The translations under genes and the position numbers were made by a program. This document shows positions 8,601 through 14,600 of a DNA stretch of 64,000 bases, piece after piece. Location: NCBI RefSeq assembly GCF_000003815.2, contig NC_049979.1, positions 14,679,459 to 14,743,458 of the forward strand. Direction: 5' to 3'. The stretch comes from Branchiostoma floridae (Eukaryota > Chordata > Leptocardii > Amphioxiformes > Branchiostomatidae). The notes below the pieces were generated by a model that saw only the letters and a program-made list of their open reading frames with translations, did no database searches and had not been told where the DNA came from. Every line of letters begins with the position of its first letter. The first letter of the stretch is position 1.

Positions 8601-11600
8601 TCAAAGTGAACACAAGTTATGTAAGCCCATTCAAATAATACCAGTAACTGTTTCATAGCAATACAGGAACTTGAAGTCTAGACTGTGCTTTTCTTCACTT
8701 CACAGATTGATTTGGGATCTTCAGAGGATGCCATCAATCAAGTCCAGTTTGTGAGGACTTACCCCCAGTGCTGCAACCCGGCTGAGCTCCTCCATCATAG
8801 TGGGCCAGTGCTGCGGCCATTCTCTCTTGATTAACTCTACAACGATCTTGGACAATGCATCCTTGATGTACGGCTGCTCAGTTAAGATATTGTCCACTCC
8901 CTGTGGTGATCATAATAGAGTAAATGTCAAAACCAATTTCAAGTCTCTTAAGTAAGGGACAAAGACCTCCTAACCTCATTCAAGAAAAGAAAACTTACTA
9001 TATGGTACAACCACTTGTCATGGTCAGTGGCACTAGCCAGAACTATTACGTATCACTCAGGGAAGAAGAAAGAGAGGTAGGCGACAAATGGAAGGATGAT
9101 ATCAGAGAATGGACAGGCATGGCACTAAGTGAAACACTAGAAAGGCAACATTTTCCAGAAAATGCAGGATGTTTCCCTTCCAGTGATTTTCCTTTTGCCA
9201 AGCTACTCACACATAATACTATGCCATAAGCATTACCCTGAACCTAAAAATTAAGATAATTTATGCAACTTGATTCATTCATTTAACAAACGCTTTTTGG
9301 AACCTTTTGGTATACAATGCAATGTGAGCAATTGTTCTTAAGAAAATCAGTTTCTTCTTGTGATTTTTTGTGATAAAAATGCAATATGGCCATTTTTTGA
9401 TATAAAGTTAGAATAACATTAACAAGTAAATGAACATAAACAGGTTGTTTCCATTGAACCTAAGTAATTGAAGCAGTTTGAACTTCATTAACATGCCATT
9501 CTTCTATACATCTATTCACTTTAGCTTCATCACAAAATAGACAGACACAACTTCTGTAAACCCTTATCTATACAAAACAAGGAGATGTATCTACTTCAAC
9601 TCAAAGGCCTAACTTTGGGTTTGTTTTAAAAAATCCCTGGGGCTAAATGCCAATTATTACCATAACCCTGCTGGCTTATATCACCCTAATGACGTCATTG
9701 ACGGTTCTTACCTCTGCCATCATTTTCAGCACAGTGTCCTTAAACTGAACCTTCTCTGAGGGTTGCCAGGAGTTCCAACGAAATCTGGAAAAAAATGTTT
9801 TGCTTGAGTTTATGGTTTGCTCAATTTCTTTCTGTAGTAACAATTCTAAAGACCTAAAACTGCTAAGTGACCTGCTAACTGTGCACCTTGCATGTGATGT
9901 CTTGTGTGGCATAATGTGGACATCATACAGATATTCTACCACATTTCAATTACTTGTTTAAGAAAAAGAGGATAAATACATTGCTGTATGAATATGTATC
10001 TGAGATCTTTTAGAATTAGATGGAAGAAAAGCATTGCATGAAATTTTAAGATCATGATCAATTTATTTCCTCCTGCTTGTTTTACCAGGTTTCTTGTTGA
10101 AAAATGAAAATCATCAATGACACACTGTATCTAGACAAAAGAAACATTGTGAATGCAAAATTTTAATCTATTGATAAGTTATCCAACCTGACTAGAAACC
10201 ACTTGTTTGCTTACCTAGCACAGTGTTCCAGTAGTTGAAGCCCAAAGTGTCTGATGACAGGATTGTTGTTTTTCTGTGCCAGCTGCAGACCGCATGCTGC
10301 ACAGTGCGGAGAGTGTTCCTTAAAGTTTTCACAGAGCTGGAACAGAATGATCACATATGTATGTTCACTTTGAACTGTTATTTCACTACATGTGTATAAA
10401 TATTGCTACCACAGTTAAATGATAAACTGGATAGTGAGTGTGTGTGTGTGTGTGTGAGTGTGAGAGTCTGCCATGCATTAGTGGTACGATGCTGTTAGCA
10501 GTAACTGCTACAAAATTATTAAATATATCTCCTGCTGGTGTAATCAATATATTGAAAATACAAAGATTCAAAATAATATACTGTGAGTGTGAGCCAGAAC
10601 TGACAATACACTCCAATTTCTTTCTGTAACTTTTGGCTTACATTTAGAGCTGAGTACCTAAATAGATTTTAGGTACAGGTACATGTACACGGGTTTAGGT
10701 ACAGGTCCGAACCTGTATCTGTACCTGGACTACTCGTTCAAATAACGGATGATCTTTTTCTTAGATGACGACAAAAGCATGTTTGAACTGACATATTGAT
10801 ACCTACAGTGTTTAGTTGCACTAGACACAAGCCTATTGCATAACAATGTACAGACAGTTTCTTTTTTCTTTCATGGGGACTTTACCTTTGATATACAAAT
10901 GCATTATCTATCTATCGCCGCACATACATTCTGATCTCTGTGAGAAGGCTTATGACATATATATGTATTAGAAGTTGTACTGCAAGGTCCATGTACCGAA
11001 GGGCCATGCTGTACTGCAAGGGACATATTTCCATTTCCCTCAATACCGAACAATACATTTATTAAAAGTAATTTGCGCTGATTGCCGACCAATTGGAAAA
11101 AAAGCAGCGTGAGTGAACACATGAGAAGGAAACATGTGGGAGAGAGAAATGACAGCACATCTGACCATCATCCAACGGATATAGAGACAACAACAACAAC
11201 AACAACAAAATAACCAAAATCATGTTATCTTTTTTATATGGTATATTGTCAAGATTTTACTAACACCATGGTTTCGAGTTCTTTAGTCTATTTGCGGTAA
11301 CAGTTGTGCAAGGTCTTTTATCATCAACCATTGTGAAACAACCAGAGGGGCGAGTAAGAACAGAAAGCCCACAGCGACTAACTCGTCAGTTTTCATCCAT
11401 GGTGTTGTGTACTGTTTACTCACCTCCACAATCACCACATGAAGATCTACTTGTTGAGCATCTGATCACAGCGGCGGACCAGCTTCGCACAACGTATCCT
11501 AACATCGGCTTTGCCTTTGTTGGAGACTTTAATCATGTCAATATTCATGACATTCTTTTAGATCGTGAATTCTCTCAAGTTGTCCACAACAATACCAGAG

Positions 11601-14600
11601 GCAACGCAATTCTCGATCTCATAATTACCAACATGAAGACGTGCTACAAGAAGCCAGAAATTCTTCCACCCTTGTCACTCAGTGACCACAACTGTGTGTT
11701 GTGGAAACCGCAGGTGAAGCTCAAACAAAACACAGGTACTAAGAAGACCATCAGACCAATCCGTGAACCCGGCCTGAGCGAATTTGGGAGATGGATCACC
11801 TCACACCCATGGGATGAAGTGTACGGTGCAACAACAGCAACTGACAAGACTAAAGCCTTCTACGAGACTCTTACTACTGCGATCGACAAGTTCTTTCCTG
11901 CAAGAACAATTAAACTTCATCCTAGAGACAAACCTTGGATAACCCCCCAAATCAAGTTCCTCATCAAACAGAGACAAGAGGCCTTCTCAAAAGGAACTTT
12001 TACACCCAATTCAAAGTACTACAAGTACAAGGTGCAGAAAGAGATTCGGAAAGCAAAGAATAACTTTTACAAGGTCAGGGTCGAGAGTAGTAAGACGGAA
12101 AACCCCAGATCATGGCACAAGAACATTAAGAACATGTGCAACATGAACAAGAAGATCAATCGCATCAATACTCCAGGTATAAGTCAAGATGACTCCACAG
12201 CGATTGCCAATGAAATTAACTCTAAATTCGCTGAAGTGTCTCAGTCCCTGCCGCCACTGGAGCCTGCATCGCTGCCAGCCTTCCTGCCGGACTTTCCACT
12301 CCCGACTGTACACGTCTGGGAAGTGTATGCCCACTTGCGTTCCACTAACCCCCATAAGAGTCCTGGACCTGACGGCGTGCCTGCCTCCATACTAAAGGAG
12401 TTTGCATGTGAAATCAGTGGCCCTCTATGTGACCTGATCAACACATCACTCAAGCAGGGAGTCGTCCCCCAGGAGTGGAGAGAGGCAAACGTTATTCCAC
12501 TGCCAAAGTCGTCACCACCACACATTGATGACCTGAGACCTATTTCTTTGACCCCGTTACTAGCCAAAGACTGCGAACGTTTCGTTGCAAACTGGATACT
12601 GGAAGACATTACTCCTAATCTTGACCCTCGCCAGTTTGGCTGCAGAAAGAAAAGGTCAACAACCCACGCTCTTGTGAGCCTCCTGGACTTCATGTACAAG
12701 TCAACGTCAACCCCACCTTCCTCATGCACCCTGGTAACAACCGACCTTTCTAAAGCCTTCGACAGAGTCGACCATGCCACCGCCGTTAGATGTCTGTTGG
12801 ATCTCGGTGTACGCCCTGCCCTAGTACCGTGGTTGTACAATTTTATGTCCAACAGAAGGCAAAGGGTAAACTACATGGGGGAAACATCTGACTGGATCTA
12901 CCTGACATGTGGTGTAGCCCAGGGTACGATCTTAGGTCCAATCATCTTCATGGCTTTGATCGACGGGGCACTTCGGGATGTACTTGATCGTTGGAAGTAC
13001 GTTGATGATATGAACCTTGCACAAATGTGGTCGATCCGTCAACCTTGCACTCTTCAACTGACTTTGAACGACCTGACCTACTGGGTTGACGAGCACTGCA
13101 TGAAACTAAACCCAAAGAAATGCAAAGTCCTACATGTTTGCTTTGCGAAGTCACCCCAACTACCGGAACCACTCACGCTGGAAGGTCAAGCTCTAGAAAC
13201 CGTGGTGTCCGTCAAGGTCGTCGGTGTGACGGTTCAAAACGACCTGAAGTGGAACATTCACGTCATCAACATGACCTCAAGTGCTAACAGGAAACTGTAT
13301 TTACTGCGCAGACTCAAACGTTTTGGTGTGTCGATCGCCGACCTCACAACAGTCTTCACAGCGTACATCCGTCCGGCACTTGAGTACGCGACTCCTGTAT
13401 GGCATTCTTCCCTCACTGTGAAACAAACCGCTAGCCTGGAACGCATCCAGAAGAGGGCTTGCAGGATCATACTTGGTCCCCGTTATCACAGCTACGAGTC
13501 AGCAATGCAGACTTTGAACCTCTCCACCTTGTTTGATCGACGGGTCGGCATTTGTCGCTCTTTCGCCAAGTCCCTGCTAAACTCCGAGTTCCGAAACTGG
13601 CTACCCCCCCTCCGGCAGGAGATTTCAGGACGCCAAACCCGCAACTCGCACAAGTTGGATACCCCATTGTGTCGCCGAACACGTTATATGAACTCACCAA
13701 TCCCATACATGGTTGGACTTTTAAACTCATAACGGTTCCTTGAAACCGATATTTCTAACCTGGTCTCCGCTCATTTGTTTCAGTGCATTTTGATATGTGT
13801 TCAGAGATTACTTGTAATTGTTTCAGTCAGTTTAATGTTTACACGTAACAGATAAAGAACACAGATGATCTGCCGTACCACGTAATTGATATTTAATGAA
13901 ATCAGTGTTCAAATATTTTAATGACCTATATTTTTATATGGATTGGTAACCTGTATTGTTTTTAATGCACTTCAGTGGAATTGTGATGTTCAGAGCAATT
14001 CAGGATGGACATCCTGCAAGTCTGAATTTGAATAAAACTTGAACTTGAAACTTGAAAAAAAAAAAAAAAAGAAACAACACCCCGACTCCCGGGATTCGAA
14101 CCCGCGCCGAACCCGGGCAGCCGGATCACAAATCGAACGTGCAAACCGTTCGGCCAAAGGGCTTAAGCCGTTAGGCGTCTTCGGTTTAGCAGTCCTTGAA
14201 CACCACTGTTACACTACTCCCCCTTTTCTTTTCAAGATTCGTCCTCGAATCCGTCCGAGATCGACATCCCTGTGTGGCACATACTAGCCTGTTAATCACA
14301 GGGCCGGCGTGGGAACCAGTGAAACAACCAGAGGGGCGAGTAAGAACAGAAAGAAACAACACCCCGACTCCCGGGATTCGAACCCGCGCCGAACCCGGGC
14401 AGCCGGATCACAAATCGAACGTGCAAACCGTTCGGCCAAAGGGCTTAAGCCGTTAGGCGTCTTCGGTTTAGCAGTCCTTGAACACCACTGTTACAATTGC
14501 ATCAAATGAAAATGGGTTGCACCATGGTGCACCATTTTTTAAATAAATTCAACAGTTAGCAAAAATATCACATTTTTTAACACTTACTTTATTTGGAAAA

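What the first reader, a model, noticed from the sequence alone, without database searches (positions are those of the whole stretch)
11334..14495. Miniature LTR element whose LTRs carry a tRNA-like pol III promoter
Seen: two identical 176-bp LTRs, a 106-bp interior with a possible PBS and a purine tract, ATTG target duplications, and in each LTR an A-box-like TGGCCGAACGG plus a perfect B box. Known: plant Cassandra TRIMs carry 5S-rRNA-derived pol III promoters in their LTRs. Inference: this is an animal analogue built on a class II tRNA-like unit. I am not aware of a described equivalent in amphioxus.
Basis: partly seen in the sequence, partly recalled or inferred. Interest (0 to 1): 0.8.

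Follow-up and report, generated by a model that had tools for sequence, protein, structure and literature searches.

The report
tRNA-promoter mini-retrotransposon (Helenus) and partner
A 458-base jumping element whose end repeats carry a tRNA-like promoter is real and belongs to a group described in 2024 (Helenus), and its relatives in this genome point to a helper retrotransposon and to many insertions that copied most or all of a host tRNA, something retroviruses normally avoid.

Summary
Confirmed, with corrections. Window 11334-14495 holds a minus-strand miniature LTR element: 176-bp LTRs (TG..CA), 106-bp interior, tRNA-Glu PBS, polypurine tract, ATTG target duplications. One LTR is split by a 2.7-kb non-LTR retrotransposon. 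A and B boxes lie in each LTR in transcription sense. Of the 18 further LTR pairs in the listed part of an A-box search, 17 have perfect 4-bp duplications and one 3 of 4; a tandem SINE is rejected. The tRNA part is best not read as class II and folds no better than chance.

The kind is known: Helenus (Kojima 2024, PMC10886601), TRIMs with tRNA-like LTRs and, in animals, 4-bp duplications. Its main text does not name Branchiostoma. So: a new member of a known kind.

New here: (1) a likely autonomous partner, a Gypsy-type family with an integrase domain, similar PPT/hairpin, LTR termini and tRNA-Glu PBS, and one Gypsy-LTR/Helenus chimera. (2) Of 42 tRNA-Glu PBS sites read (63 found), 31 continue into the complement of at least 50 nt of tRNA-Glu(CUC); 8 of 14 with definable ends have perfect 4-bp duplications. 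They look like integrated reverse-transcription products that ran past the m1A58 stop. Pol III transcription is untested.

The parts
14320..14495 (-). 5' LTR (176 bp, TGTAACA...GTTTCA), intact
14214..14319 (-). 106-bp non-coding interior
   Evidence: about 92-98% alike in nearly all other copies matched
14301..14318 (-). primer-binding site TGGTTCCCACGCCGGCCC, complementary to the 3' end of tRNA-Glu(CUC) (first 15 nt, one G/A difference)
14236..14251 (-). GATTCGAGGACGAATC hairpin before the PPT, similar in form to that of the Gypsy-type partner
14214..14232 (-). polypurine tract AAAAGAAAAGGGGGAGTAG
14060..14213 (-). 3' LTR, first part (the last bases run into the poly(A) of the inserted non-LTR element)
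11334..11367 (-). 3' LTR, last 34 bases (100% to the 5' LTR)
14428..14438 (-). A box TGGCCGAACGG of the 5' LTR
14374..14384 (-). B box GGTTCGAATCC of the 5' LTR
14146..14156 (-). A box of the 3' LTR
14092..14102 (-). B box of the 3' LTR
14496..14499 (.). target-site duplication ATTG
11330..11333 (.). target-site duplication ATTG
11368..14073 (+). poly(A) non-LTR retrotransposon inserted in the 3' LTR, probably 5'-truncated (inference); long open frame, reverse transcriptase domain at about 12503-13234; right edge ambiguous within A bases
   Evidence: RVT_1 E 4.9e-27

Best explanation
[quoted passage not shown] Shown by sequence: LTRs, tRNA-Glu PBS, PPT, 4-bp duplications, many dispersed copies, 14 of 42 parsed two-LTR copies with identical LTRs (recent activity). 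Inferred: Pol III starts just upstream of the A box of the 5' LTR and reads U5, interior and part or all of the 3' LTR; a Gypsy-type element ('g': LTR about 0.5 kb, LTR pairs about 7.8-7.9 kb apart) supplies reverse transcriptase and integrase. Support for g: a similar PPT/hairpin layout, LTR termini TGTAAC...TTTCA, 1-nt spacer and tRNA-Glu PBS, plus one chimera (g LTR + Helenus interior + Helenus LTR, L046). In this system the primer tRNA-Glu has repeatedly been copied past A58, in some copies to its 5' end. The plus-strand strong-stop DNA then cannot pair properly with the PBS, jumps elsewhere (U5 end, a second LTR, interior, or pol in a g copy), and some products are still integrated with 4-bp duplications. 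The jump and integration steps are inferred from the junctions.
For: Anatomy. Other copies: 17 of 18 pairs with perfect 4-bp duplications; 41 of 48 parsed loci. Solo LTR L033 with ACTG/ACTG. PBS tRNA identified as Glu(CUC) by ARAGORN on the copied sequence. Partner: L145, next to L105, hits PF00665 integrase core, E 8.1e-11; g PPT/LTR start aligns with Helenus at 29 against a maximum of 24 in 5000 shuffles, the hairpin part alone was matched by 25 of 5000 shuffles; g LTR pairs about 7.8-7.9 kb apart on C8, C9 and C10; chimera L046, its exact junction pattern found once in the genome. Read-through: 31 of 42 sites >=50 nt, 10 of 42 reach 74-75 of 75 nt; 8 of 14 perfect duplications, shuffled mean 0.63, maximum 4. 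T4 runs: none between the 5' A box and 3' LTR nt 55 in 42 of 42 copies (related copies, so weak).
Against: No expression data: Pol III use is inferred from boxes only. The chimera is a single copy and one end of it was not read; the reciprocal chimera was not searched for. g coding was seen only as an integrase piece (L145, 406 bases, and a few bases of L105); reverse transcriptase was not read, and a stretch upstream of the PPT in L082 reads N. The g 3' end was seen in one copy only. g's PBS in L082 (TGGTTCCTACACTGG) differs from Helenus at 3 of 15 places. Its LTR is unlike that of Helenus apart from the ends, and some Helenus LTRs end in TACA, not TTTCA. Of 42 PBS sites read, 7 stop at 25 nt or less and 4 at 30-39 nt. 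6 of 14 read-through insertions lack a perfect duplication (L100, L117 3/4, L126, L127, L135, L137). The 63 sites were chosen by a pattern that favours read-through (no C at nt 16), so 31 of 42 is not a rate. The 14 definable ends were picked by hand.
Confidence: 0.85

Rival explanations
1. A tandem or dimeric tRNA SINE moved by a LINE.
For: tRNA-like A/B boxes; arrays of three LTR units exist (L003, L020, L060, L066, L080).
Against: 4-bp duplications, TG..CA ends, PBS, PPT, no A tail; 41 of 48 loci with perfect duplications; the outer duplications of those five arrays are 4 bp too.
Confidence: 0.02
2. An ordinary Pol II TRIM in which the tRNA-like part is a passenger, for example a SINE trapped in the LTR, without promoter function.
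For: No expression data; core does not fold as tRNA; A-box region varies among relatives; Kojima 2024 also calls Pol III function unproven.
Against: GGTTC of the B box is invariant in the 7 compared LTR types while most other parts vary; no T4 run between the 5' A box and 3' LTR nt 55 in 42 of 42 copies.
Confidence: 0.2
3. Another Gypsy family, not g, mobilises Helenus; g merely shares primer and ends.
For: Only one chimera; LTR cores unrelated; g PBS in L082 diverged.
Against: Similar PPT/hairpin and termini, chimera L046, the same tRNA-Glu read-through beside g LTRs (L103, L105, L106, L110).
Confidence: 0.25
4. The LTR-plus-anti-tRNA sequences are not independent failed reverse-transcription products but an inherited TRIM subfamily with an anti-tRNA interior, or gene conversion from tRNA-Glu genes.
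For: L111 and L128 have LTR / anti-tRNA / AG / LTR, which could replicate; several share one LTR type (L109, L112, L133).
Against: Different junctions and different continuations; more than one LTR family (Helenus types, g, L115, L131); the complement of CCA, not encoded in tRNA genes (recalled), is present; the 10 sites that reach tRNA nt 1-2 do not go on into a common flank.
Confidence: 0.2

Closest known systems
Helenus (Kojima 2024, PMC10886601), animal families
   Same: TRIM length range, tRNA-like LTR with A box TRGCY..YGG and B box GGTTC, PBS to a tRNA 3' end (tRNA-Glu among those listed for bivalves), PPT, 4-bp duplications, tandem arrays, Gypsy dependence inferred.
   Different: Host not in Table 1 of that paper; here a specific partner family is proposed from similar ends and a chimera; whole-tRNA read-through insertions are not described in the sections read.
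Cassandra (plant TRIM with 5S promoter)
   Same: Pol III promoter inside the LTR; arrays of about three LTRs (passages of PMC7215508).
   Different: 5S-derived, plants; different PBS (recalled).
HIV-1 plus-strand strong-stop product 'P1' (read to the 5' end of unmodified tRNA; review PMC13191261, passages only)
   Same: Same predicted molecule: LTR plus complement of the entire primer tRNA.
   Different: In HIV-1 it is described as not an active template; here such molecules appear to be integrated in the germline.

Membership tests
Helenus | TRIM: two short LTRs, no coding interior, 311-1263 bp in all | tested here: met
   176+106+176 = 458 bp; range read
Helenus | tRNA-derived sequence with A box TRGCY..YGG and B box GGTTC in LTR | tested here: met
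   TGGCCGAACGG and GGTTCGAATCC; motifs read in PMC10886601 section 3.5
Helenus | PBS next to 5' LTR and PPT next to 3' LTR | tested here: met
Helenus | 4-bp target duplications (animals) | tested here: met
   17 of 18, 41 of 48
Helenus | Mobilised by Gypsy superfamily (inferred by its author) | tested here: inconclusive
   partner g: integrase piece, similar ends, one chimera
Helenus | Pol III transcription | not testable with these tools
   no expression data; boxes and T4 layout only
tRNA SINE (SINE2) | No LTRs, A-rich or LINE-like tail, longer variable target duplications (definition recalled) | tested here: not met
Cassandra | 5S rRNA-derived LTR promoter | tested here: not met
   A/B boxes of tRNA type; no 5S match in the Rfam scan of 14040-14530 up to E 1

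The most novel reading that the evidence does not exclude
In this genome the m1A58 stop on the tRNA-Glu primer has failed often enough that plus-strand strong-stop DNA carrying the complement of the entire tRNA is repeatedly integrated by the partner's integrase, leaving a fossil series of LTR-tRNA insertions from more than one LTR family. Exchange between copied tRNA and the LTR's tRNA-like core (as L116 suggests, where a sense tRNA-Glu sits in the LTR promoter position) could be how such elements gain or renew Pol III promoters, instead of SINE insertion.
Probability: 0.5. Interest if true: 0.75.

Novelty: new member of a known kind. Interest (0 to 1): 0.6.

Why it matters
It also names a concrete partner for an animal Pol III TRIM, which the describing paper left at the level of PBS similarity to Gypsy elements. 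The integrated whole-tRNA copies are a natural record of how strictly reverse transcription stops at m1A58, so the role of that tRNA modification in retroelement control becomes testable from genome sequence and tRNA modification data. If tRNA capture also seeds new LTR promoters, it gives a second route to tRNA-promoter elements besides SINE insertion.

Tried and rejected
Tandem SINE: rejected by 4-bp duplications and fixed ends. Class II tRNA origin: not supported. First partner candidate (L101/L107; 5.1 kb, 186-bp LTRs, tRNA-Glu PBS): rejected, since the PPT differs and no clear open frame was seen in a 1.2-kb piece that includes an N run. Patterns for the partner built on the Helenus hairpin/PPT found only Helenus relatives (8 and 3 hits). 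Rfam on 13 loci listed no tRNA-family hit, only tmRNA-model matches in L001 and L043; as that tool keeps only the best match of a clan, a weaker tRNA match could be hidden behind them. Pfam and PDB on a 25-aa piece of L105 gave nothing; the longer piece L145 gave integrase. A search for the g PPT did not complete, so the number of g 3' ends is unknown.
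Full report
What is there. On the minus strand of window 11334-14495 lies a 458-bp LTR element: 5' LTR 14495->14320, interior 14319->14214, 3' LTR from 14213, flanked by ATTG. The 3' LTR is split by a plus-strand poly(A) non-LTR retrotransposon with a long open frame and a reverse transcriptase domain. Apart from 3 bases beside that poly(A) no LTR-LTR difference was found.

It is a mobile family. The A-box string occurs 327 times in the genome against 73 for the reversed pattern (which lists only the first places). I fetched the 18 LTR pairs about 280 bp apart in that listed part, besides the window's own: 17 have perfect 4-bp duplications and one (L015) 3 of 4. 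Of 20 single A-box sites read, 12 had a recognisable LTR and 8 did not; four more (L002, L005, L006, L028) had none either. L033 is a solo LTR with ACTG on both sides. In all, 48 distinct loci were parsed: 41 perfect duplications (shuffled mean 1.5, maximum 8), 42 two-LTR copies of which 14 have identical LTRs, and 5 three-LTR arrays with perfect outer duplications. L029, L030 and L042 among them are copies of one insertion; L073 and L078 seem to be parts of longer arrays; 13 entries were skipped for an end not found, the window copy (L056) among them.

What it is. These are the defining features of Helenus (PMC10886601; I read the abstract, sections 3 and 4, and the legends and tables). That paper lists six animal phyla, 4-bp duplications in animals and tRNA-Glu among bivalve primers; its main text does not name Branchiostoma. 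In searches for Helenus, TRIMp3, amphioxus with LTR/TRIM, and tRNA-derived non-autonomous LTR elements I saw no amphioxus case among the titles and abstract starts shown (one search showed 20 of 198 papers and 20 of 28). The supplement was not readable, so 'first in amphioxus' stays open.

The tRNA-like core. Relatives with similar ends and interior carry different cores. The GGTTC of the B box is invariant in the seven compared types; the A-box region varies. The core does not fold better than shuffles.

How it probably works. Inference: Pol III starts just before the A box of the 5' LTR. In 42 of 42 two-LTR copies there is no T4 run between that A box and nt 55 of the 3' LTR. In 20 of 42 a T4 lies there, directly before the second A box, which would leave a very short R; in the other 22 the first T4 lies in the 3' flank or none was seen within 60 nt of it. 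The copies are related, so this is weak support.

Partner. The strict hairpin/PPT patterns returned only Helenus relatives. Sites with a full tRNA-Glu PBS (63 hits, reversed control 0) led to family g. Its LTR is in L105 and, at 96-99%, in L103, L106 (in part) and L110, and also in L046 and L082; 88 first-look candidates genome-wide, 40 scored, with LTR pairs about 7.8-7.9 kb apart on C8, C9 and C10. Behind the L105 anti-tRNA lies integrase coding (L145: PF00665, E 8.1e-11); calling it Gypsy-type rests on recalled motifs. In L082 the g 3' end reads hairpin ATTTGAGGACAAAT, then GGGGGAGGTAG, then TGTAAC, against Helenus ATTCGAGGACGAAT, GGGGGAGTAG, TGTAAC; score 29 against a maximum of 24 in 5000 shuffles; the hairpin part alone was matched by 25 of 5000. 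L046 is a chimera: g LTR, one base, Helenus PBS, interior and PPT, Helenus LTR. Its exact junction pattern occurs once in the genome; the reciprocal junction was not searched.

Whole-tRNA read-through. I read 42 of the 63 PBS sites (L097-L118, L121-L140). In 31 of 42 the LTR is followed by at least 50 nt, and in 10 of 42 by 74-75 nt, of the complement of tRNA-Glu(CUC), including the complement of CCA; 4 of 42 have 30-39 nt and 7 of 42 have 25 nt or less (ARAGORN identity). The 18-nt PBS normally ends before A58; here copying went on. After it come, among others, the last 12-13 nt of U5 (L130, L138), a partial second LTR (L099, L135), a full LTR (L111, L128), U5 end + PBS + interior (L133), interior (L117), or integrase coding in g (L105). 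For 14 insertions with both ends definable by hand, 8 have perfect 4-bp duplications (L099, L109, L111, L129, L130, L133, L138, L140) and 6 do not; shuffled mean 0.63, maximum 4. In L109 and L140 the right end was allowed to move by one base. The other read-through sites had an unread or unclear end. The selecting pattern favours read-through, so this is not a rate. The 10 sites that reach tRNA nt 1-2 do not go on into a common flank, which fits mature tRNA as template. A review (PMC13191261, passages only) says that without modification the plus strand runs to the tRNA 5' end and that this product is not an active template in HIV-1. Searches listed, by title and abstract start, no paper on integrated whole-tRNA copies in the held library; that is not proof of absence.

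Verdict. The finding is real and well read, but the kind was described in 2024. The added value is the proposed partner and the read-through insertions.

Noticed in passing
L049-L055, L027, L029 (e.g. L049:2311-5878): A roughly 3.6-kb repeat with terminal inverted repeats CGCCCATTCCTC(A/G)TTAA and 4-bp duplications (7 of 7 copies read, by eye) carries a Helenus insertion (TTCC duplication) and has been copied with it: 9 distinct places share the Helenus flank.
   Followed up: partly
L007, L018, L085, L030/L049: Single insertions with perfect 4-bp duplications whose two LTRs are of different types (core or U5), hinting at recombination between copies or cDNAs.
   Followed up: partly
L116: A sense tRNA-Glu sits in the promoter position of an LTR, fused at the T arm to U5, next to a PBS.
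   Followed up: no
L094:707-1672: Old array of Helenus relatives inside what looks by translation like a Cu/Zn superoxide dismutase gene (recalled motif).
   Followed up: no
L043:998-1075: Palindrome in the TIR repeat scores 45.2 and 42.3 bits on the two strands against Rfam mir-87, below its 49-bit cut-off.
   Followed up: no
L101, L107: 5.1-kb LTR element with 186-bp LTRs and a 20-nt tRNA-Glu PBS, no clear coding seen in a 1.2-kb piece with an N run.
   Followed up: partly
L088, L090: Helenus-type interiors with tandem repeats of a TGTGAGTAACAGGCTAG...TGCCACAC unit.
   Followed up: no
window 14497-14552: Short imperfect palindrome directly beside the insertion site.
   Followed up: no
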